Assembly: GCA_029432815.1 (NCBI GenBank) | Contig: JAROBA010000019.1 | Span: 1-64,000 of the forward strand | Source of the DNA: Pontiellaceae bacterium B1224 | GTDB taxonomy: Bacteria; Verrucomicrobiota; Kiritimatiellia; Kiritimatiellales; Pontiellaceae | DNA: 64,000 nt | Reading direction: 5' to 3' | Shown: positions 8,619-64,000 of the stretch, piece after piece | How the letters are laid out: each line of letters begins with the position of its first letter | Numbering within the stretch: the stretch's first letter is position 1 | Program-made: the position numbers and the translations under genes | Notes under the pieces: generated by a model | What the model saw: only the letters and a program-made list of their open reading frames with translations | Told to the model about the DNA's origin: nothing | Database searches by the model: none

Positions 8619-9836
8619 ATGGAAGCGGTACGTATTCTTCTCGGCGGGGTTCCGTTCGGGCGCAATAATGTCGGTGATGAGGCCATTTTGGAATGCGTCG
8701 TCGGCATTCTGCGTGCTGTTTCGCCGGGGTGCGAAATCACGGTCAGCACCGACGATCAATCCGCAACGGAAGCGCGGCTCCAGGTTCAAACCGTTCCGCT
8801 TTTCGGATTTGACCCACCCTTCAGCCGCAAGCAAATGGAAGAATGCATTGCCCGTGCCGACGTGTTTATCTGGGCGGGAGCCACCGGACTTTCCGACTAT
8901 CCTGAAATTCCGCTCAGCATGCTGGAAGCCGCTCACCGGACCGGCACCAAAACTGTGGTGTGGGGCGTTGGGATGAACGATACATTCAATCCCTATATCT
9001 ACAGCATTCTGCCCGGGAAACGCCGAACGCTTCTGAATCTGCTGTCGCTGCTGACCTTTAATAAAATCCATTTTGCCCAACGTCTGGAAAAGCAGGCCGA
9101 AGACCGCGCGCGGGATAAAATTGCTAAAGAGCTTAACCAGTGCGATCTCGTGGTCCTGCGCGATCCGGAAACATTGACGGCTGTGCATCGTTGCGGCGAT
9201 GTCCCCCGGGCTGTTGTGGGGGCGGATTCCGCCGAAATGCTGGAGCCCGCCGATTGGGAGGAAATCACCCTCACCCGCGAAGCCCGGCAGATTCTGGATT
9301 CCAAAGCCCGGAAGATCGGGCTGTGTATATCGGCACAGCGCAAACTCGTTCACGAAAAGGAACTCATCGATTTTCTCGATCGGTTGGCCGACAAGAACTA
9401 TCGAATCGTTTTTCTGCCCATGAACCATTCAACCGATGCGCCGCTCATGGAAAAGCTGCGCGACAGGATGCAGAATAAATCGCACTCAACCATTATTGGC
9501 GGTAGACGCTCGCCCCGCGAAATTCTGGCCATTGCCGGCCGGCTGGATCTGGTCATCAGCAGTCGGCTTCATCTGCTCATTCTCGCCTCGGTGCTGCACG
9601 TTCCAATCATTGGAATCAGCCGAGGGAGTAAGGTGGATAATTTTCTGACGGCCTTCGGACACACCTCCGCCGGCAGTGTCGATGAATGCGACTTCGACCA
9701 CATGCAGAACGAACTCGATCGGCTGATCGACAGCCGGGATGAGTTTAAAGAGGTCAGTACCGCAGTCCATGAAATGCTGCTCCAGCGGTTGGAAGAAGCA
9801 AAGCTGCGGCTGGCACAGGTTTTACAGCGCGGCTAG
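8619..9836 (+). CDS. polysaccharide pyruvyl transferase family protein (CsaB-like)
   Basis: The family adds ketal pyruvate from phosphoenolpyruvate to envelope sugars. The start LLGGVPFGRNNVGDEAILE is the family's typical N-terminal motif. Later conserved blocks include ISAQRKLVHEKELIDFL, the GGRRSPREILAIAGRLDLVISSRLHLLILA segment near residue 300, and VPIIGISRGSKVDNF. An ATG at 8568 would add 17 residues; the internal ATG puts the family motif at the N-terminus, and neither has a strong ribosome binding site. The 3' end overlaps the convergent oxidoreductase by 15 bases. A dispersed palindrome (9601) codes the VPIIG segment. A pyruvylated surface polymer is inferred. Confidence 0.75.
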   Translation: MEAVRILLGGVPFGRNNVGDEAILECVVGILRAVSPGCEITVSTDDQSATEARLQVQTVPLFGFDPPFSRKQMEECIARADVFIWAGATGLSDYPEIPLSMLEAAHRTGTKTVVWGVGMNDTFNPYIYSILPGKRRTLLNLLSLLTFNKIHFAQRLEKQAEDRARDKIAKELNQCDLVVLRDPETLTAVHRCGDVPRAVVGADSAEMLEPADWEEITLTREARQILDSKARKIGLCISAQRKLVHEKELIDFLDRLADKNYRIVFLPMNHSTDAPLMEKLRDRMQNKSHSTIIGGRRSPREILAIAGRLDLVISSRLHLLILASVLHVPIIGISRGSKVDNFLTAFGHTSAGSVDECDFDHMQNELDRLIDSRDEFKEVSTAVHEMLLQRLEEAKLRLAQVLQRG

Positions 9837-54908: not shown

Positions 54909-56240
54909 ATGTTTGGTAAGCCGAGAGTTGTTAAAGAGAAAGAAGCGCCTCCACCGCCAGATGGAGTGGCAGAGATTGCCCTGTGTGTTTTCGATAAGAA
55001 ACACAGGGTGAAGTATGCCTTCAGATCCCGCGACCATTCTGTTGTTAGCGGGGATGCTTTTAATGTACTCCGTGATCCGCAAAAGGCATTCGATAACAGC
55101 GTACTGGCGGAAGCCGTTGCTTCGAATACATCAGCATTGCTGACTTTTACGTTCGGGGATGGCGTTGCCAAATATCTTTCTGTGCTGCCGTATGAGCACA
55201 AGCCCGGAAAAATATACTATGCCTGTCTTCAGATTTCTGTTCAGAAAGCGGACGATGAGACCGGCATGCCGGCGTATATCCGTGCTTTGCGTGAGGGACG
55301 GGCCTGTCTATTGATTGCAGATGCCGGAAAAACCATCGTTTCCGTGAGCGCGAATATACCGGAAGCATTTGGATATTCGCGCACTGCTCTCGAGGGACTG
55401 CAGCTTTCGGATCTGTTCGGCCCTGCCGATCTGAATATGATTTCCTCCTGTTCTCCAAATACCAATGAGTCGATTCTCAGCTGTTCGTTCTCGTGTCAGG
55501 ATCAGTCGCGGCGCGATGTGGAAGTTAAAAAATATTCAACCACGGATGGTTATGTGCTGTATACCATTTGCGATGTTACACGGGCGCAGTTGAATGAAGA
55601 GATTGCCGCTGTGACAACGCGAGAGCGGCGACGGATCGGCCAGGATCTGCACGATTCCATTGGTCAGCTGCTAACGGGCATCAGCCTGCTGAGCCGTTCA
55701 CTGGCGAACAGTCTCCTGCGAGAGAAGGCTCTGGAAAGTGATGATGCTGTTCAGATATCGGAGCTTGCGGACGATGCCAACAATCAGATACGGCAGATTT
55801 CAAGGGGCCTGATGCCTTCGGATATTGTTTATCGAGGGCTTTATCCATCGTTGCGGGATCTGGCGAAAATGACATCGGATAGCTGCGGCTTCCAATGTGC
55901 AGCAATTATTGATGAATCCATTGAATTTTCTGATGGCGCGGTAGAGACCCATCTGTTCCGAATTGCACAGGAGGCCGTGCATAATGCGGTCCGCCATTCG
56001 GGCGGGAGCGAGATTGAAATCATTATTTCAGAACGAAATGGACTGCCTCAGCTTGAAATTAAAGACAATGGCAGTTGGCGTAATATTATGGAAAATTCCG
56101 GAGGCATCGGAATGAAAACCATGCAGTATCGGGCTTCGGCTATTAACGGACGGCTTAATATCGGGCAGATAGCTGGCGGGGGAACCCATGTCGTGTGTAG
56201 ACTTGAGGCAGAAGAAGTTCAGGGAACGGAAGTGGTTTAG
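54909..56240 (+). CDS. cytoplasmic PAS-containing sensor histidine kinase (HisKA_3)
   Basis: The 443-residue protein has no signal peptide or membrane helix. An N-terminal domain of unknown type (1-115) is followed by a PAS domain (about 125-225), the HisKA_3 domain with H248 (RRRIGQDLHDSIGQLL), and an ATPase domain (AQEAVHNAVRHSG, DNGSWRN, GGIGMKTM). This is the NarX/DegS class, which pairs with NarL-type regulators. The response regulator starts three bases after its stop. The pair lies just upstream of the secretin operon, so it could control pilus/secretion genes, but no DNA site shows this. Confidence 0.9.
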   Translation: MFGKPRVVKEKEAPPPPDGVAEIALCVFDKKHRVKYAFRSRDHSVVSGDAFNVLRDPQKAFDNSVLAEAVASNTSALLTFTFGDGVAKYLSVLPYEHKPGKIYYACLQISVQKADDETGMPAYIRALREGRACLLIADAGKTIVSVSANIPEAFGYSRTALEGLQLSDLFGPADLNMISSCSPNTNESILSCSFSCQDQSRRDVEVKKYSTTDGYVLYTICDVTRAQLNEEIAAVTTRERRRIGQDLHDSIGQLLTGISLLSRSLANSLLREKALESDDAVQISELADDANNQIRQISRGLMPSDIVYRGLYPSLRDLAKMTSDSCGFQCAAIIDESIEFSDGAVETHLFRIAQEAVHNAVRHSGGSEIEIIISERNGLPQLEIKDNGSWRNIMENSGGIGMKTMQYRASAINGRLNIGQIAGGGTHVVCRLEAEEVQGTEVV

Positions 56241-56242
56241 CT

Positions 56243-56935
56243 ATGGCAGCGCATAAGAAAAAGTCGGCAGGGAAAGCGAAGCGTCAGGTGTATCTGGTGG
56301 ATGATCACCCGATTGTCCGTCAGGGTCTGATTAAACTGATTGAGCAGGAGGATGCGCTGGAAGTCTGCGGCGAGGCCGGCAGCGTCGGGGAGGCGCTGGG
56401 CGAAATCCGGAAGCTGGGTCCGGATATTGTGCTAGTCGATATCTCTCTGGAGAATTCCAACGGTCTGGAGCTCATTAAGACGATCGATGATCTGGGGTTG
56501 AAAATCCCGACACTGGTGCTTTCAATGCATGATGAATCGCTCTATGCAGAACATGCCCTAAAATCCGGAGCCAGCGGCTATGTGATGAAACAGGCGGCAT
56601 CCAATACCCTGATTCAGGCCATCGAGAAGGTACTGGATGGAGAAATATATGTTAGCAAGACAATGTCTTCTCAAATGTTAAAAATGGCTTTTCGAGGGAC
56701 TGGAGAGAAGCAGCGCAGTGGAACAGAGGCTTTGAGTCTCCGTGAACTAGAGGTTTTTGAGTTAATCGGGCGGGGGAATTCCACCCGGGAAATCGCAGAA
56801 CAATTGAGTTTGAGTGTAAAAACAATTGAGACCTACCGTGCGAACATTAAAGACAAGTTGCAGTTACGCAGCGGGACCGAATTAATGCAGAAAGCGATTC
56901 ATTGGGTAGAAAACGAATCGCATAATATTACCTGA
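56243..56935 (+). CDS. NarL/LuxR-type response regulator
   Basis: A receiver domain (about 15-135) with D20/D21, phospho-acceptor D66 (VLVDISLENSNG) and the K-type switch (VMKQAASNTL) is followed by a LuxR helix-turn-helix (LSLRELEVFELIGRGNSTREIAEQLSLSVKTIETYRANI). The first 14 residues are basic (AAHKKKSAGKAKR). It forms an operon with the kinase and is closed by a strong terminator. Confidence 0.92.
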   Translation: MAAHKKKSAGKAKRQVYLVDDHPIVRQGLIKLIEQEDALEVCGEAGSVGEALGEIRKLGPDIVLVDISLENSNGLELIKTIDDLGLKIPTLVLSMHDESLYAEHALKSGASGYVMKQAASNTLIQAIEKVLDGEIYVSKTMSSQMLKMAFRGTGEKQRSGTEALSLRELEVFELIGRGNSTREIAEQLSLSVKTIETYRANIKDKLQLRSGTELMQKAIHWVENESHNIT

Positions 56936-56963
56936 AAAATCGCATAATCCCTTTGTTTGCAGA

Positions 56964-56998
56964 GCCAGACTTCCAATCATAGGAAGTCTGGCCTTTTT
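56964..56998 (+). terminator. terminator after the NarL-type regulator
   Basis: Perfect 11-bp stem GCCAGACTTCC / GGAAGTCTGGC with a 7-base loop and CTTTTT tail. The apex contains TTCCAATCATAGGAA, a one-mismatch copy of the dispersed palindrome. Confidence 0.92.
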
Positions 56999-57238
56999 AT
57001 TTGGAGGCTCTGGCTGACGGAGAACATATCGGGGAATCCCCGATGACCTCTTTCGGTTTCCCCCGCATCATTCATCAGGGATTATTCTATGTAGGTTTCA
57101 GCGATCGCCCGTCTAGTGAAAATACATGAACCGAGTAATATCTTATTTGCGGTCGATGTTACGAAAGGCTGACGAGAGGGCCTGAACGACATTGTATATA
57201 AAAGACAATAAAGATGTAAAAAGTGCTCGGGAGTTGTG

Positions 57239-57255
57239 TTGGCACGACGGATGCT
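57239..57255 (+). promoter_or_regulatory. sigma-54-type promoter of the secretin/pilus operon
   Basis: TTGGCACGACGGATGCT fits the sigma-54 pattern TTGGCAC-N5-TTGCT with one change, and the GG and GC dinucleotides are exactly ten bases apart. The predicted start is about 27 bases before the ribosome binding site of the secretin gene. The 240 bases between the upstream terminator and this promoter hold nothing else I can name but leave room for an enhancer-binding protein. Confidence 0.7.
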
Positions 57256-57292
57256 CTTTCATCTACAGTGTGGTCACTAAAAGGAGAAAACC

Positions 57293-59047
57293 ATGATGAA
57301 GTACATGAAGAAGGCCGGCATTGGTGCCCTGATTGGGTTGTTGGTATTTATCGTAATCGCGCCACTTTCCTCAATTGCGCAGGAAACAAACACAGCAACA
57401 AGCAGCCGGATTATTGAACCTGATGTTGATGTAGAGGATGCTGAGTTCGTCACGATTAACGTCAAGAATGCAAATATTTCCGAGGTGCTGAAAGCATACT
57501 CGCTTCAGACGGGACAAAGCATTGTGGTGGGGCCGGATGTTATTTCCGATAATGTGAATGTCCGCCTTAATAATATTCCGTGGGAAGAGGCGTTGGATGT
57601 TATCCTCAAGCCGTATGGTTTTGGATATCGTGTGGTAGGCGATACCATTGTGATCAGCAAGCTGGAAAATATTGTTACGGTTGAAGGTATTGAGCCGCTG
57701 GTCTCGAAAGTTTTCAACCTCGGTTTCCGGGATGCCTACGACATCAGGGCCATAGTTGAAGCGCAGCTTTCCGCTCGCGGAAAATATACCATTCTGGAAA
57801 CCAAGAGTCTTCCTGGCTGGGAATTTGGCGGGGATGGAAAAAGCGGGGCCGCCACAGAGTCCGGTGTACGTGTCCGAAAACAAAAAGTAGAAATTCAGAA
57901 GAGTAAAACTTTTGTGGTCACGGATGTTCCGTCCGCCCTTTCCCGAATTGAAAAAATCATTGAAAAAATAGATCTGATGCCGCAACAGGTATTGATTGAA
58001 GCTAAATTTCTTGAAATCAGCACAGGAGGCCTTTCTGACATTGGTCTCGACTATGTCCAGGGATTGGAAAATGTTGAGGACTACACTACATCAGGCGGGA
58101 GCTCGCTCACGGTGAGTCCCGTGGATGACGTGCTCAAACTGTTGAATGGGTCAACAGGGTACCCAAACCCGTTGAATACGGCTGCTGCTGGTGGGTTTTC
58201 GATCGATGAAGGAATTACGCTTTCACATAGTGTACTCGATGACTGGGGCGCTGAAATGGCATTTGCCTTCATTGCATCAGATGAAGATGCCAATGTTCTT
58301 TCCGCTCCGAAAATCCTGACACTGAACAACCAGGAAGCAGCGATTCTGGTGGGCCAGAAATATCCGATCATCGATTCCCAGAATAACAGCAGTGGCGGAA
58401 GTGCCCTCACCTCCACCAGCCTCGACTACTATGAAAATATCGGCATTCAGCTGAATGTGATTCCACAGGTTTGTGCTGATAATTATGTGAATATGGTGGT
58501 GCATCCTGCGGTCAGTGAAATCGACAGTTTCGAATCGGGTGTTGTTACTGCCGGCAGCGATGTTCAGTCAGGTACCCGCTATCCGATTCTTAAGATTCGC
58601 GAAGCGGAAACGCAGATTATGCTGAAGAGTCACAGCACGGCGGTAATTGGTGGGCTTCAGGAAGAACGTGATAAAGAAACCGTTAAGAAAGTTCCATTCC
58701 TTGGAGACATTCCTTACATCGGACGCCTGTTCCGGCGCGAAACCATCACCAAACAAAAAATCGATCTGCTGATTTTCATCAAGGCTTCCATCGTTGAGCC
58801 GACATCCTATGAGGCAGCCTCGGCACGGCAGGAAGAAATGCGCCAGGCCAGGATGGAGTTGGAAATCCTGAAAGACAACGAAGATGCCGACTTTTCCACA
58901 GAGTCGCACATAGAGGATACTGTCGCGGCAGACAATGCTGTTGCCGCACTGGATGCCGGTGTGGAAGATGATGGCTCCGAAATTCTAGCACTGGTTCAAA
59001 GTATGAACAGCATCTCATCCACCAACAGCGCGGCTACGGCAAAATAA
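57293..59047 (+). CDS. type II secretion/type IV pilus secretin (GspD/PilQ family)
   Basis: The 584-residue protein has a signal peptide (1-29). An N-terminal STN/N0-like domain follows (about 44-120, TINVKNANISEVLKAYSLQTGQSIVVGPDV), then N-type subdomains and the C-terminal secretin barrel with VLSAPKILTLNNQEAAILVGQKYPI, VNMVVHPAVSEID and HSTAVIGGLQEERDKETVKKVPFLGDIPYIGRLFR. Secretins form the outer-membrane ring for pilus or pseudopilus export. AGGAGA upstream supports the start. It is the first gene of the pilus operon behind the sigma-54 promoter. Confidence 0.92.
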   Translation: MMKYMKKAGIGALIGLLVFIVIAPLSSIAQETNTATSSRIIEPDVDVEDAEFVTINVKNANISEVLKAYSLQTGQSIVVGPDVISDNVNVRLNNIPWEEALDVILKPYGFGYRVVGDTIVISKLENIVTVEGIEPLVSKVFNLGFRDAYDIRAIVEAQLSARGKYTILETKSLPGWEFGGDGKSGAATESGVRVRKQKVEIQKSKTFVVTDVPSALSRIEKIIEKIDLMPQQVLIEAKFLEISTGGLSDIGLDYVQGLENVEDYTTSGGSSLTVSPVDDVLKLLNGSTGYPNPLNTAAAGGFSIDEGITLSHSVLDDWGAEMAFAFIASDEDANVLSAPKILTLNNQEAAILVGQKYPIIDSQNNSSGGSALTSTSLDYYENIGIQLNVIPQVCADNYVNMVVHPAVSEIDSFESGVVTAGSDVQSGTRYPILKIREAETQIMLKSHSTAVIGGLQEERDKETVKKVPFLGDIPYIGRLFRRETITKQKIDLLIFIKASIVEPTSYEAASARQEEMRQARMELEILKDNEDADFSTESHIEDTVAADNAVAALDAGVEDDGSEILALVQSMNSISSTNSAATAK

Positions 59048-59101: not shown

Positions 59102-60811
59102 ATGATTACCGACCAATTAAGTGAAATGATGATCAGGAGCGGTCGCGTCGGCTCTTCTGAACTGGAAAAGGCTATGGCCATCCAGGAAGAGAGTGGTCGG
59201 GTCTTAACCGAGATTCTGATTGAGGAGGGGCTGGCTTCTCCGAATGATATTGCACGGACTTTTTCCGAGCTCCTGAATATTCCCTATCTTGATTTGGGGG
59301 ATGATTTTCATCTCAAGCGCGATGAATATGACATGATTCCCGAATCGGTTGCCCGGCGCTTCTGCCTGATTCCTCTCGTGAAAGAAGCTGGTGAAGCCAT
59401 TACGGTGGTGATGAAGAACCCGCTGGACATGGATGCCGTTGATACGGTCCGCTCGTTGACCTCCTTTGAAATTCATAAAGCGGTCAGTACGGAAGAAAAG
59501 ATTAATGCCATTATCGACAAGTGCTACAGAGAAGAGGCGTATGTTGAGTCCAGCCTGCAGGACATTGTCGATATTGAAGCGGCCTCAAATGCAGAACTGT
59601 TTGAAACAAACATGGGAGACGTGGATCAGCTGCTGGTTCATGCCAACGATGCGCCGGTAGTACGATATGTCAACCTGCTGCTGATGGAAGCGGTGCGTGA
59701 CGGCGCTTCGGACATTCATTTCGAACCCGGTGAAAACAGTTGTACGGTTCGCCTGCGTGTGGATGGATCGCTACAGCCGGTAACTCCGCCGCCGAAGTCG
59801 TTGTTTCAGGCCATTGTCACGCGCATAAAAATTCTGGCTGAAATGGACATTGCAGAACGCCGGCTGCCATTGGACGGGCGTTTTAAATTTAAGTTTTCCG
59901 GCCGCGTGGTGGATGTTCGTGTTTCGTCCATGCCGCTGGTTTTCGGCGAAAAAGTGGTGATGCGTATTCTTGATAAGCAGAGCCTACTGCTGGATCTTGA
60001 AGACATCGGTTTTGAAGGCCGGAGCCTGAAACGCTTTAAAGAAGTTCTGGGCATGCCGAACGGGATCGTGTTGCTGACGGGACCAACCGGAAGCGGCAAA
60101 ACAACCACTTTGTACAGCGCGCTCCAGATTCTTAAAAGCACAACGCGTAATGTCCAGACCGTGGAAGATCCCGTCGAATATCTGATCGATGGTATTAATC
60201 AGATGCCGACCCGTCCGAAAATCGGCCTGACCTTTGCCGAATGTCTTCGCCATATTCTGCGCCAGGACCCTGATGCAGTGATGATCGGAGAAATCCGCGA
60301 TGCAGAAACCGCCGAGATTGCCATGCGGGCCTCGCTGACCGGACATATCGTTTTGAGCACGCTGCACACCAACGATTCCACCTCCTCTTTCAGCCGTCTG
60401 CGGGATATCGGGATTCCCTCTTACCTGACGGCGGCGACGATGCGTCTGATCATTGCGCAGCGTCTGGTTAAAACCATTTGCCCGAACTGTAAAACGGTAT
60501 ATCAACCGGATGATGCTGAGCTGGAGTGGGCGAAAACGATTGATCCGGATGTAGCGAATCGGACGTTCTACCACGGTATCGGATGCAATCAATGTCGGAA
60601 CCGAGGAATGAAAGGGCGCCGTGCTATCTTTGAATTTCTTGAAGTAACACCGCCAATCAGAGAGCTGGTGCATGAAGAAGTAGATGATATGACTCTGCGT
60701 CGGAAAGCCATCGAGGGCGGCATGCAGACTCTGCCGCAAAACGCTTTCCAGCGTGTGCGCGAAGGGCACACCACCATCAGCGAAGCCATCAGCGTTTGTA
60801 TGGTGGACTAA
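59102..60811 (+). CDS. GspE/PilB-family assembly ATPase
   Basis: The 569-residue protein has an MshEN-type N-terminal domain (1-150) and the hexameric ATPase core. The core has Walker A GPTGSGKT (K333), the Asp box RQDPDAVMIGEIRD, the His box and a zinc motif of four cysteines (CPNCKTV and CNQCRNRG). It powers pilin assembly on the cytoplasmic side. It lies between the secretin and the inner-membrane platform gene. Confidence 0.95.
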   Translation: MITDQLSEMMIRSGRVGSSELEKAMAIQEESGRVLTEILIEEGLASPNDIARTFSELLNIPYLDLGDDFHLKRDEYDMIPESVARRFCLIPLVKEAGEAITVVMKNPLDMDAVDTVRSLTSFEIHKAVSTEEKINAIIDKCYREEAYVESSLQDIVDIEAASNAELFETNMGDVDQLLVHANDAPVVRYVNLLLMEAVRDGASDIHFEPGENSCTVRLRVDGSLQPVTPPPKSLFQAIVTRIKILAEMDIAERRLPLDGRFKFKFSGRVVDVRVSSMPLVFGEKVVMRILDKQSLLLDLEDIGFEGRSLKRFKEVLGMPNGIVLLTGPTGSGKTTTLYSALQILKSTTRNVQTVEDPVEYLIDGINQMPTRPKIGLTFAECLRHILRQDPDAVMIGEIRDAETAEIAMRASLTGHIVLSTLHTNDSTSSFSRLRDIGIPSYLTAATMRLIIAQRLVKTICPNCKTVYQPDDAELEWAKTIDPDVANRTFYHGIGCNQCRNRGMKGRRAIFEFLEVTPPIRELVHEEVDDMTLRRKAIEGGMQTLPQNAFQRVREGHTTISEAISVCMVD

Positions 60812-60824
60812 ACAGGAATCAGAC

Positions 60825-62087
60825 ATGGCCATGTTCAGCTACATTGCGAAAACGAATGAAGGGCAGGAGGTCCGTTCCTCCCTCGAAGCCGGCTCTCGGC
60901 TGGAGGCTTTGGAAACTCTGCGTAAAAAAGGACTCACGGTGGTGGACCTTTTCAGCGTGGAAGAAAAAAATGTAGAACTGAAGGTTAATAGGGCCGCGGA
61001 TGCGCAGGAAAAAAAAGAAAAGGCCCAACGTAAATCCTTCTCGTTTTCGTCTCGGGTAAAAATGACCGACCTGGCCATTTTCTGCCGGCAGTTAGCCATT
61101 TCAGTGAATGCTGGGTTGCCGTTACGCGATGCTATTGAAGGCATTGGAATGGAGTTGGAACATCCGGTGCTCAAACGGGTGAGCCGGGATATGGTTGAAC
61201 AGCTGCACGATGGCAAAAGTTTCTCTGAAGTGGTGGCGCGCCATCCAAAGGTATTTAATACCATGTTTACCGGTCTGATTAAAGTGGCAGAGGAATCCGG
61301 AAAGCTGCCCGAAACGCTGAAACAGCTGGCCGATTATCTGGAACGAACAGATCGCCTGCAGCGGCGTATTAAAGCTATGTCGACCTATCCGGCCTTCATC
61401 GGTATTTTCTTTGTTGTGGTCTGTCTAATTATGACGCTCTTTATTTTGCCTCAATTTACGGATATTTTCGGTGGATTGGGCGCAGATCTTCCTCCATTTA
61501 CTAAATTGGTATTCGGTGTTAACAATTTTTTTGTGGATAATTTTCTATTCATCGTTATCGGTGTTGCGCTGTTAATTACGGGCATCGTTATATACCTAAG
61601 AACGGACTCCGGGGCCTATCGAAAAGATCAGCTGAAGCTTAAGCTGCCCTATGCAGGGGGCTGTCTGAAAAAATATATTCTGGCCCGCTTTTGCCGAAGC
61701 CTGTCGATAATGGTCAACAGCGGAGTCCCGATCTCCAATGCATTGGAGATCTGTGCGGAAGCAACCGGTAATCAGCTGGTACAGCGCAGTGTTCTCGGGG
61801 TTCGCGAAATGATCATGACCGGGAGCCGTATTGCTGTCAGTATGGAGCGCGCTGGAATTTTTCCGGGATTGATTGTCCGGATGGTGGCGGTGGGGGAAGA
61901 TTCCGGTCAGCTGCCGGAAGTGCTCGACAATGTTTCCGACCTTTATGAAGACCAGGTTGAAGTGTCAATTATGACCTCGATGGCTCTGTTCGAACCGGTG
62001 ATTATCTGTGTGTTCGGGGTCTTCATCCTCATGATCGTAATGGCGATCTACCTGCCGATGTTCACGATATCCAGTGGAGTTCATTAG
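60825..62087 (+). CDS. GspF/PilC-family inner-membrane platform protein
   Basis: The 420-residue protein has two cytoplasmic GspF domains (LAIFCRQLAISVNAGLPL and LARFCRSLSIMVNSGVPI) and membrane helices near 200-222, 255-275 and 390-415. Its N-terminus begins MAMFSYIAKTNEGQEVRSSLEAGSRLEALETLRKKG, usual for the family. The start at 60825, 13 bases after the ATPase stop, was chosen over an ATG inside that gene. It links the ATPase and the pilin. Confidence 0.95.
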   Translation: MAMFSYIAKTNEGQEVRSSLEAGSRLEALETLRKKGLTVVDLFSVEEKNVELKVNRAADAQEKKEKAQRKSFSFSSRVKMTDLAIFCRQLAISVNAGLPLRDAIEGIGMELEHPVLKRVSRDMVEQLHDGKSFSEVVARHPKVFNTMFTGLIKVAEESGKLPETLKQLADYLERTDRLQRRIKAMSTYPAFIGIFFVVVCLIMTLFILPQFTDIFGGLGADLPPFTKLVFGVNNFFVDNFLFIVIGVALLITGIVIYLRTDSGAYRKDQLKLKLPYAGGCLKKYILARFCRSLSIMVNSGVPISNALEICAEATGNQLVQRSVLGVREMIMTGSRIAVSMERAGIFPGLIVRMVAVGEDSGQLPEVLDNVSDLYEDQVEVSIMTSMALFEPVIICVFGVFILMIVMAIYLPMFTISSGVH

Positions 62088-62216: not shown

Positions 62217-62636
62217 ATGAATACAAAGAAACAGAAAAAAGCAGGTTTCACACTGGTGGAACTGATGGTTGTAGCAATTATCGTAGCAATTCTTGCCGCA
62301 GTAGCCATCCCCTTAATGTCGGGTAATACAGATCGTGCCATGGCAACTGAAGCGCAGGCAGGTTGCAGTACGGTTGCCACCGGGATTAAGCTGTGGGTTG
62401 TTGAAGGGTCGGAAACAGGTGAAACTAATGGTATTCCCACCATAGTTGAATTACCGGGCATCACAGCAGCTGACCTTCAGGGTAACTACTTCAAAGAATA
62501 CTCAGTTGATTCTGTTGGCAGCGCTAACACCTACACGATCACTGCAAGCCCTGGTGCTGACGGTAAAGCCTCTGCTGATGTCACTATGACCGTAGTGAAC
62601 GGTACGGTTACCTGGACTGGCCTCGGTCAAGACTAA
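62217..62636 (+). CDS. type IV pilin/pseudopilin
   Basis: The 139-residue prepilin has the leader KKQKKAG cleaved before FTLVELMVVAIIVAILAAVAIPLM, with E5 in place. The mature head is small (about 115 residues), acidic and rich in Gly, Ala and Thr, and contains one Cys. AAGGAG five bases upstream of the ATG marks strong translation. A hairpin follows the gene. It is the only pilin in view, so it is the candidate major subunit. Confidence 0.93.
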   Translation: MNTKKQKKAGFTLVELMVVAIIVAILAAVAIPLMSGNTDRAMATEAQAGCSTVATGIKLWVVEGSETGETNGIPTIVELPGITAADLQGNYFKEYSVDSVGSANTYTITASPGADGKASADVTMTVVNGTVTWTGLGQD

Positions 62637-62720: not shown

Positions 62721-63659
62721 ATGAGTGCAGAGAACATAGCCGGAATTAATATTGCAGATGGCGTCGTAAGTACGGCCCGCGTGGTGCGGCGTGGACGGCA
62801 TAAACTGGCGCTCACGCATGCGGGGTGGATGGAATATGCGCCAGATGCAAGCGATGAAGAAATTATTCGGGTGATTCGTTCGTTATGGAAAAAAACGAAG
62901 ATGCCGACCCGTACGGTATGTTCCGGGTTGCACACCCGATCGCTCTGTCTTAAATATTTTAAATACCCGGATCTCGCCCCGCGCGAATTAACCTCTGCAC
63001 TAAGCCTGGAAGCGGAAGAATCGCTACAGCTTCCACCGGGAGAAATTGCGTTGGACTGGCATTTAAACCGGCCTAAAAATGATCCGTATACCCAGCTGGG
63101 TGAACAGCTTCACGGTATTTTGGTTGCCGTGGGTAAAAAAGAGGTGAACGGGCAGCTCAATCTGCTGAAAAAAGCCGGACTCTTTCCGGTCATTACCGAC
63201 GTCGGGTGTACCTCCTTATGTAATTTGTTTTTAGCCCTGCGCGGGGAAAAGGTGAATACAGATAACGCAGTCTGTGTGGTGAACCTTTCGCGCTTCAATG
63301 CTGATATTTCCATTCTTTATAATGATCACTACATCTACCCGCGTACGATCATTTCCCGCTCATCAGAATGGTCGAGTAAGGTACAGTATCTCATAGAAAA
63401 CATTTCCGACGCATTGCTCTATTATCATGTGAAGGTGGATAAAACTCCGGTAAATCAATTGGTGCTTACCGGCTACGTACCGAAGGATCCGGAATTTGTG
63501 GCCCAGATTCACGATACCATTGGCTTGCCTACTGAGGTTTGGAGTCCGTTGAAAGATAAGAATTTTACGGTTGCCCGTACCATTAAATCGACTAAAGAGC
63601 ACGATGTGATTTCCCCGCTAATGACCACCAGTCTGGGGCTTGGATTAAGGAATATCTAA
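62721..63659 (+). CDS. PilM-like actin-fold pilus assembly protein
   Basis: The 312-residue protein has the PilM/FtsA-like nucleotide fold: IAGINIADGVVSTARVV, TRTVCSGLHTRSLCLKYFKYPDL, ALSLEAEESLQLPPGEIALDW, then LFPVITDVGCTSLCNLFL. PilM is the cytoplasmic member of the PilMNOP alignment complex. It lies 85 bases after the pilin and two bases before a PilN-like gene. Confidence 0.8.
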   Translation: MSAENIAGINIADGVVSTARVVRRGRHKLALTHAGWMEYAPDASDEEIIRVIRSLWKKTKMPTRTVCSGLHTRSLCLKYFKYPDLAPRELTSALSLEAEESLQLPPGEIALDWHLNRPKNDPYTQLGEQLHGILVAVGKKEVNGQLNLLKKAGLFPVITDVGCTSLCNLFLALRGEKVNTDNAVCVVNLSRFNADISILYNDHYIYPRTIISRSSEWSSKVQYLIENISDALLYYHVKVDKTPVNQLVLTGYVPKDPEFVAQIHDTIGLPTEVWSPLKDKNFTVARTIKSTKEHDVISPLMTTSLGLGLRNI

Positions 63660-63661
63660 AT

Positions 63662-64000
63662 ATGCCTGTTGATTTTAAAATTAATTTAGCCAAGGACCTG
63701 ACCAGCTCCACTGAAGAGCGAACCCGGTTCTACAACGGAATGCTGATATATCTACTGGCCTGCGCTGTGCTTTTGGTTTTTGTTGCATATACCGCAAGTT
63801 CAAACCTGCGCAGTTACATGAAAAACAAGGCTGAGCAGCAACAATTGCGAACCACAGCATTTGCTGTCGCTGAGCTTGATCCGGCTGCCTTCAAAAACCC
63901 CGGGCAGACCTATAATGCGTTGGATACCTATTCCCGGAAGATTGCATCGTTGAAGCAACTGCTTGGTCAACGGGTTCAGTTGCTTCCGGTGGTGCATAAC
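63662..64000 (+). CDS. PilN-like protein (5' part, runs off the window)
   Basis: The reading frame opens at ATG 63662 (MPVDFKINLAKDLTSSTEER) and is open to the window end (113 codons seen). The early FKINLAKDL box is typical of PilN-like proteins and is the part that binds PilM. A membrane helix is at about residues 30-48 (LIYLLACAVLLVFVAYT), followed by a coiled-coil-like periplasmic part. It follows the PilM-like gene by two bases. Confidence 0.75.
   Translation, partial: MPVDFKINLAKDLTSSTEERTRFYNGMLIYLLACAVLLVFVAYTASSNLRSYMKNKAEQQQLRTTAFAVAELDPAAFKNPGQTYNALDTYSRKIASLKQLLGQRVQLLPVVHN

What the first reader, a model, noticed from the sequence alone, without database searches (positions are those of the whole stretch)
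57239..57255. Sigma-54-type promoter in front of the secretin/pilus operon
TTGGCACGACGGATGCT has the exact ten-base GG to GC spacing and lies at a fitting distance from the start codon. Control of a pilus or pseudopilus operon by sigma-54 would link it to an enhancer-binding activator. Neither nearby response regulator has the needed AAA+ domain.
Basis: partly seen in the sequence, partly recalled or inferred. Interest (0 to 1): 0.5.

Follow-up and report, generated by a model that had tools for sequence, protein, structure and literature searches.

The report
Conserved sigma-54 promoter before secretin operon
A bacterium of the Pontiella group carries a genuine sigma-54-type start switch in front of its pilus/secretion operon, kept at the same place in most relatives, and next to it a second, even better conserved control region that probably belongs to a neighbouring sensor-regulator pair.

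Summary
The site TTGGCACGACGGATGCT (57239-57255) is as described: 13/14 of YTGGCACGRNNNTTGCW, GG-N10-GC, 54 nt before the secretin ATG. Alone it proves little: four such strings in 5.4 Mb against three for the reversed pattern. Conservation settles it: 14 of 19 Pontiellaceae genomes have a 10/14-or-better site 52-61 nt before the orthologous ATG; shuffles average 0.24 of 19. The genome has two rpoN genes and 12 NtrC-type activators, and the motif precedes nifH and amtB. No 5' end is mapped.

New: a ~95-nt gapless block (57025-57123), unique to this operon, lies 96-146 nt upstream, just after the genes of a HisKA_3/NarL-type pair. Block and site are lost independently: G002, G012 and G010 keep block and regulator without a good site; G020 keeps the site without either. 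I infer two inputs. Candidate activators shrink to three, PilR the likeliest by context only. New member of a known kind.

The parts
57239..57255 (+). sigma-54 -24/-12 element TTGGCACGACGGATGCT (P2); predicted start of transcription about 57266 (inferred from spacing)
   Evidence: 13/14 match; conserved in 14 of 19 orthologous upstream regions, 15 of 19 with G018
57025..57123 (+). genus-specific conserved block of fixed spacing in 16 genomes; probable operator array
   Evidence: the exact 3' part occurs once per genome and only here
57028..57044 (.). perfect palindrome ATCGGGGAATCCCCGAT inside the block
   Evidence: read; conserved as GGG...CCC in most of 16 genomes
57096..57116 (+). TTTCAGC-N5-CCCGTCTAG, the most conserved part of the block
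57114..57141 (+). possible sigma-70-type promoter P1: TAGTGA-N16-TAATAT (relatives about TTGNGG-N16-YRANNT); inferred only
   Evidence: conserved G, R-A and Y-T columns 18-25 nt after the block end
54909..56240 (+). sensor histidine kinase gene (HisKA_3, HATPase_c)
56243..56935 (+). NarL-type response regulator gene (Response_reg + GerE, no AAA+ domain)
   Evidence: orthologues of 81-88% identity in the family
56964..56992 (+). intrinsic terminator after the response regulator gene
57293..59047 (+). secretin gene (Secretin, STN domains), first gene of the operon
59102..60811 (+). assembly ATPase gene (T2SSE, MshEN)
60825..62087 (+). inner-membrane platform gene (T2SSF, two copies of the domain)
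62217..62636 (+). major (pseudo)pilin-like gene (N_methyl)
62721..63659 (+). PilM-like gene
63662..64000 (+). start of a PilN-like gene by position (no Pfam match); the operon runs on past the window through small PilO-like and minor-pilin-like genes
   Evidence: names of the small genes are by eye

Best explanation
57239-57255 is a working sigma-54 promoter. RNA polymerase with sigma-54 (most likely the family-wide RpoN1, gene at C146) binds the -24/-12 element and starts transcription about 27 nt before the secretin ATG, once an NtrC-type AAA+ activator encoded elsewhere drives open-complex formation. The most likely activator is the PilR-like regulator of the genome's other pilus locus (C139). 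The operon has a second, separate input: the NarL-type response regulator encoded just upstream probably binds the conserved palindromic block at 57025-57123 and drives or tunes transcription from a sigma-70-type start next to it. Shown: the site, its positional conservation, rpoN and activator genes, the block, and that block and site are not lost together. Inferred: the start point, which sigma-54 and which activator, regulator binding to the block, and the P1 promoter.
For: Site 13/14; conserved 52-61 nt before the ATG in 14 of 19 genomes against 0.24 expected, 15 of 19 with G018. Two rpoN genes here; most relatives that keep the site have a single rpoN. Twelve activators here; G008, G026 and G023, which keep the site, have three each, and these are the same three: a GAF/NifA-like one, a ZraR/NtrC-like one and the PilR-like one. 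Positive controls in the same genome: the motif precedes nifH, a nifE-like gene, two amtB, urtA-like, nirB-like and fliS genes; 35 matches against 14 control. Separate inputs: G002, G012 and G010 lack a good site but keep block and full regulator; G020 lacks regulator and block but keeps a 13/14 site. The tree needs two losses of the site within the genus.
Against: No transcript 5' end or binding data. Four of 19 genomes lack a good site (G002 9/14, G012, G010, G001). G004 has a 10/14 site although no rpoN was found in its 490-contig assembly. The motif alone occurs at chance frequency. No conserved activator-binding repeat lies between block and promoter. The regulator-block link is not clean: G019 lost the regulator to an IS66-like insertion and G003 keeps only its HTH part, with three changes at otherwise invariant residues, yet both keep most of the block; such losses may be recent. 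Joint loss of block and regulator inside the genus rests on one genome, G020.
Confidence: 0.82

Rival explanations
1. One promoter only: the conserved block is the upstream enhancer (UAS) of the sigma-54 promoter, bound by an NtrC-type activator such as PilR, and the NarL-type regulator merely sits nearby or modulates.
For: The block lies 96-146 nt upstream of the site, where enhancers lie; palindromic and repeated half-sites; it contains GTCT, which a paper describes near PilR sites (PMC6058289, passage).
Against: G002, G012 and G010 keep the block without a good sigma-54 site although they have the PilR-like gene; G020 keeps a 13/14 site without the block; no conserved (C/G)TGTC repeats.
Confidence: 0.25
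2. The -24/-12 element is a decoy or relic: transcription really starts from the upstream block region, and the sigma-54-like string is a chance match.
For: Exact pattern frequency in the genome is close to the control; at least two lineages have lost the site while keeping the operon.
Against: Positional conservation in 14 of 19 genomes against a shuffle maximum of 3, with nearly the same spacing to the ATG although much of the leader does not align.
Confidence: 0.06
3. The conserved block is transcribed and works as RNA (leader, riboswitch or small RNA).
For: About 95 nt of fixed spacing; one palindrome could form a hairpin.
Against: No Rfam match at E 1 or less; outside the palindrome no paired arms are seen by eye; a consensus fold was not computed.
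Confidence: 0.08

Closest known systems
pilA promoter of Pseudomonas aeruginosa (PilSR/sigma-54; PMC6058289, passages read)
   Same: Sigma-54 promoter for a type IV pilus gene, with a PilS/PilR-like pair encoded in a pilus locus of the same genome.
   Different: Here the promoter precedes a whole secretin-ATPase-platform-pilin operon, not a lone pilin gene; the PilR-like gene is not adjacent; no (C/G)TGTC repeats are conserved; a NarL-type pair and a conserved block lie upstream.
Ralstonia solanacearum rpoN1/rpoN2 (PMC4371752, passages read)
   Same: Two rpoN genes in one genome, with pilus functions assigned to one of them.
   Different: Here RpoN2 lies in a flagellin/flgL cluster and a second rpoN occurs in 5 of 29 genomes; the division of labour is only inferred.
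Sigma-54 enrichment at type II secretion genes in Myxococcia and, for COG2165, Planctomycetia (PMC12316311, passages read)
   Same: Computed sigma-54 control of type II/IV machinery genes.
   Different: Its main text does not name Kiritimatiellota (0 occurrences of 'kiritimatiell'); the passages read describe no second NarL-type element.

Membership tests
sigma-54-dependent promoter | GG at -24 and GC at -12 with ten bases between, near TGGCACG-N4-TTGC | tested here: met
   13/14, GG-N10-GC
sigma-54-dependent promoter | rpoN gene in the genome | tested here: met
   two Sigma54_DBD genes, E 1.7e-58 and 1.1e-50
sigma-54-dependent promoter | AAA+ enhancer-binding activators in the genome | tested here: met
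   12 genes at E 1e-40 or better; GAFTGA seen by eye in the three core activators
sigma-54-dependent promoter | positional conservation in orthologues | tested here: met
   14 of 19, shuffle mean 0.24, maximum 3
sigma-54-dependent promoter | activator-binding site upstream | tested here: inconclusive
   a conserved block exists, but its presence does not follow the sigma-54 site; no other widely shared motif
sigma-54-dependent promoter | transcription start about 12 nt after the -12 element, dependent on rpoN and ATP | not testable with these tools
   needs RNA data and mutants
PilR-controlled pilus promoter | PilS/PilR-like pair in a pilus locus of the genome | tested here: met
   C139 locus, L053 5592-8244; no NCBIfam cut-off reached, the name rests on position
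PilR-controlled pilus promoter | repeated (C/G)TGTC binding sites (consensus recalled) | tested here: not met
   none in the window's own 420 nt upstream, no conserved cluster in 19 genomes
type II secretion (GspD/E/F) or type IVa pilus (PilQ/B/C) proper | NCBIfam cut-offs for secretin, ATPase and platform proteins | tested here: not met
   secretin GspD 217 of 351 and PilQ 211 of 284 bits; ATPase PilB 586 of 676 and GspE 574 of 630; platform GspF 316 of 424; a related machine of neither named type

The most novel reading that the evidence does not exclude
A pilus/secretion operon of this genus runs on two separable promoters that evolution has tested one at a time: a sigma-54 promoter driven in trans by an AAA+ regulator, and an upstream promoter driven through a ~95-bp genus-specific operator by an adjacent NarL-type pair. 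Lineages have dropped either one and kept the machine, so natural single-promoter variants exist for both.
Probability: 0.45. Interest if true: 0.5.

Novelty: new member of a known kind. Interest (0 to 1): 0.38.

Why it matters
Sigma-54 control of pilus and secretion machinery is well known in other phyla. This gives a well-supported case, with a phylogenetic footprint and natural losses, in Kiritimatiellota (relatives of Verrucomicrobiota; marine polysaccharide degraders, recalled), and narrows the activator to three proteins. The second element offers a test of how an operon can shift between sigma-54-driven and response-regulator-driven expression.

Tried and rejected
Motif counts alone: rejected as evidence, 4 exact matches against 3 control in the genome and 29 against 34 expected in the window at two mismatches. 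A sigma-70 scan of 56800-57400 gave one reverse-strand hit, at the chance level. Rfam gave nothing. The block as a repeat or mobile element: rejected, one copy per genome and only at this operon. Across 288 genomes of the phylum the exact pattern hits 11, five of them in this genus and six elsewhere, against six genomes with a control hit, so outside the genus it is at chance level (the six outside hits were not studied). The block as coding: rejected by eye, since its variable columns do not follow a codon pattern. PilR-type TGTC repeats: none conserved. I first read the absence of a site in G018 as a loss; the regulator-side contig then showed the block and a 12/14 site 130 nt after its CTTTCAGC part, the secretin contig being cut 165 nt before the ATG. 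I first read the block in G019 as decayed; its 3' part has one mismatch, at an otherwise invariant base, and only the palindrome is weak, so I claim no decay. An RNA model, structure prediction and fold search were not run.

Sister family (5 genomes with a match at E 1e-60 or better, 6 loci read): the secretin gene directly follows a PilT-like gene (by eye), with no block and no site at the conserved position; one locus (G035) has a 12/14 match 167 nt before its ATG, inside the upstream reading frame. G001, the other genus of the own family, looks alike.

Full report
Observation. The string is at the stated coordinates, with GG at 57241-57242 and GC at 57253-57254. It matches 13 of the 14 defined positions of YTGGCACGRNNNTTGCW (consensus recalled), the exception being A instead of T before TGC. 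The site starts 54 nt before the secretin ATG; with C at -12 the predicted start is about 57266, leaving a 27-nt leader with AAGGAG. The regulator gene upstream ends at 56935 and is followed by an intrinsic terminator at 56964-56992. As a mere string the site is not remarkable: 4 exact matches of TGGCACGNNNNNTGCW in 5,377,058 bases against 3 for the reversed pattern.

Is it real? The secretin has orthologues at E 1e-60 or better in 21 of 29 genomes of the family; 19 have the start of the gene with upstream DNA, and two more (G014, G027) are cut inside the gene. Related named records are Pontiellaceae bacterium B12219 and B12227 and other Kiritimatiellales. In 14 of the 19 a GG-N10-GC site scoring 10/14 or better starts 52-61 nt before the ATG; 11, 9 and 6 of 19 reach 11, 12 and 13. 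Five hundred dinucleotide shuffles give means of 0.24, 0.05, 0.02 and 0, with maxima of 3, 1, 1 and 0; eight shifted windows and the reverse strand give none. In G018 the secretin contig begins 165 nt before the ATG and shows no site there, but the contig with the regulator ends with the block and a 12/14 site. Lacking are G002 (9/14, GG-N10-GC kept), G012, G010 and G001.

Machinery. The genome has two Sigma54_DBD genes. Of 29 family genomes 28 have at least one; the exception is G004, a fragmented assembly whose site scores 10/14. The second RpoN here (C142) lies beside flagellin and flgL-like genes. Five of 29 genomes have two full-length matches; G011's two matches are fragments of one place. 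Since many genomes with the site have only one rpoN, RpoN1 is the likelier partner. The looser pattern TGGCAYRNNNNNTGCW gives 35 matches against 14 control. I read the downstream gene of 31 of the 35; by eye they include nifH, a nifE-like gene, two amtB, urtA-like, nirB-like, narK-like, moaA-like and fliS genes. These are classical sigma-54 targets and serve as positive controls; the nitrogen sites mostly end in TGCA, the operon's in TGCT.

Activator. The genome has 12 Sigma54_activat genes at E 1e-40 or better, none on the window's contig. G008, G026 and G023 keep the site and have three each. I fetched 40 activator loci from eleven genomes, not all of those listed, whose table was itself cut. 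Matched to the window genome's 12, the three in each of these three genomes are one GAF/NifA-like, one ZraR/NtrC-like and one PilR-like protein at 66-89% identity. Incomplete assemblies (81-92% complete) could hide a fourth. The PilR-like gene sits with a PilS-like kinase in a second pilus locus on C139. It reaches no NCBIfam cut-off among the families shown, so the name is by context. PilR is my first choice because PilR with sigma-54 drives pilA in Pseudomonas aeruginosa (PMC6058289, passages). The (C/G)TGTC repeats recalled for that protein are not conserved here. G002, G012 and G010 have the PilR-like gene although they lack the site, so its presence does not predict the site.

The second element. 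Aligning the upstream regions showed a block stronger than the promoter: 57025-57123, reading roughly ATMGGGGAWTCCCCKAT, TTCCG, TTTCCCCAAT, CAGGGTTT, TTCCAT and CTTTCAGC-N5-CCCGTCTTG at fixed distances in 16 of 19 genomes (MAFFT puts in a few one-base gaps), plus G018. It is absent in G020 and G001. The exact pattern TTTCAGCNNNNNCCYGTCTNG occurs once in each of 13 of 29 genomes, always at this operon, with one control match in all. Outside the genus it is at chance level. It lies 96-146 nt upstream of the sigma-54 site with variable spacing. Eighteen to 25 nt after it, G, R-A and Y-T columns are conserved, which with TTGNGG would make a weak sigma-70-like promoter, TAGTGA-N16-TAATAT here. This P1 is inference.

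Who uses it? The HisKA_3 kinase and NarL-type regulator genes lie directly upstream. The regulator is conserved at 81-88% identity, more than the secretin. Fifteen of the 17 genomes with the block have a regulator orthologue (in G023 and G025 on another contig); G019 has none, and G003 only its HTH part. In G020 pair and block are both gone, while the promoter scores 13/14. In G019 an IS66-like insertion (by eye) has replaced the end of the kinase gene and the regulator, but most of the block remains. In G003 the HTH fragment has three changes at otherwise invariant residues, and the block remains. So the link rests on position, uniqueness, palindromes and one joint loss inside the genus; I hold it at about 0.6.

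Two inputs. The tree puts G002 with G012 and G010 elsewhere, so the site was lost at least twice; G020 and G019, the two genomes without a regulator, are apart, so the regulator was lost at least twice, the block once. In that tree run I had labelled G019 'sigma54 only' on the loss of its regulator, and G018 as unknown; G001 and the sister family are long branches. That either element can be missing while the other and the operon remain fits two promoters better than one promoter with its enhancer. A single sigma-54 promoter with the block as enhancer stays the main rival.

Machine. Secretin, ATPase, platform protein, pilin-like protein and PilM-like protein are clear by Pfam, but no NCBIfam cut-off for GspD, PilQ, GspE, PilB or GspF is reached. 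I call it a type II/IV filament machine without choosing. In the sister family and in G001 the operon follows a PilT-like gene (by eye) without this promoter region, so the two-element region is probably an innovation of the genus.

Literature. Searches for Pontiella with sigma-54 gave 0 papers, and with 'secretion system' 1 paper, seen in the listing only. Broader searches gave sigma-54 control of pili and secretion in other phyla. A 2025 survey (PMC12316311, passages) reports sigma-54 enrichment at type II secretion families in Myxococcia and, for COG2165, Planctomycetia, with no occurrence of 'Kiritimatiell' in its main text. PMC3162934 was seen as title and start of abstract in a listing; five terms searched in it gave no passage. 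I therefore rate this a new member of a known kind.

Noticed in passing
G000:C142 (L002, L180) and G000:C146 (L001): Two rpoN paralogues; the second lies in a flagellin/flgL cluster, and two full-length rpoN genes occur in only 5 of 29 family genomes, suggesting a flagellar sigma-54.
   Followed up: partly
L109, L110, L112, L114, L116, L119, L125: Nitrogen-gene sites share TGGCACACC-N3-TGCA, while the pilus operon's sites end in TGCT; two subclasses of -24/-12 elements may exist.
   Followed up: partly
L074 about 700-1660 (G019): IS66-like insertion in the histidine kinase gene next to the operon, with loss of the response regulator.
   Followed up: partly
L073 about 9190-9490 (G003): Free-standing HTH remnant of the NarL-type regulator, with receiver domain and kinase gone.
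   Followed up: partly
L053 (G000:C139): Second pilus locus with PilS/PilR-like, PilB/C-like, PilMNOP-like and secretin genes; an exact -24/-12 string lies inside the gene before its secretin (C139:46587).
   Followed up: no
L124 (G000:C131:13535): Sigma-54-like site 54 nt before a fliS-like gene, close to an NtrC-type gene at C131:12537.
   Followed up: no
L021 / L054 (G000:C155:2018): TGGCACGTCCGATGCT 103 nt before an mreB-like gene; conservation not tested.
   Followed up: no
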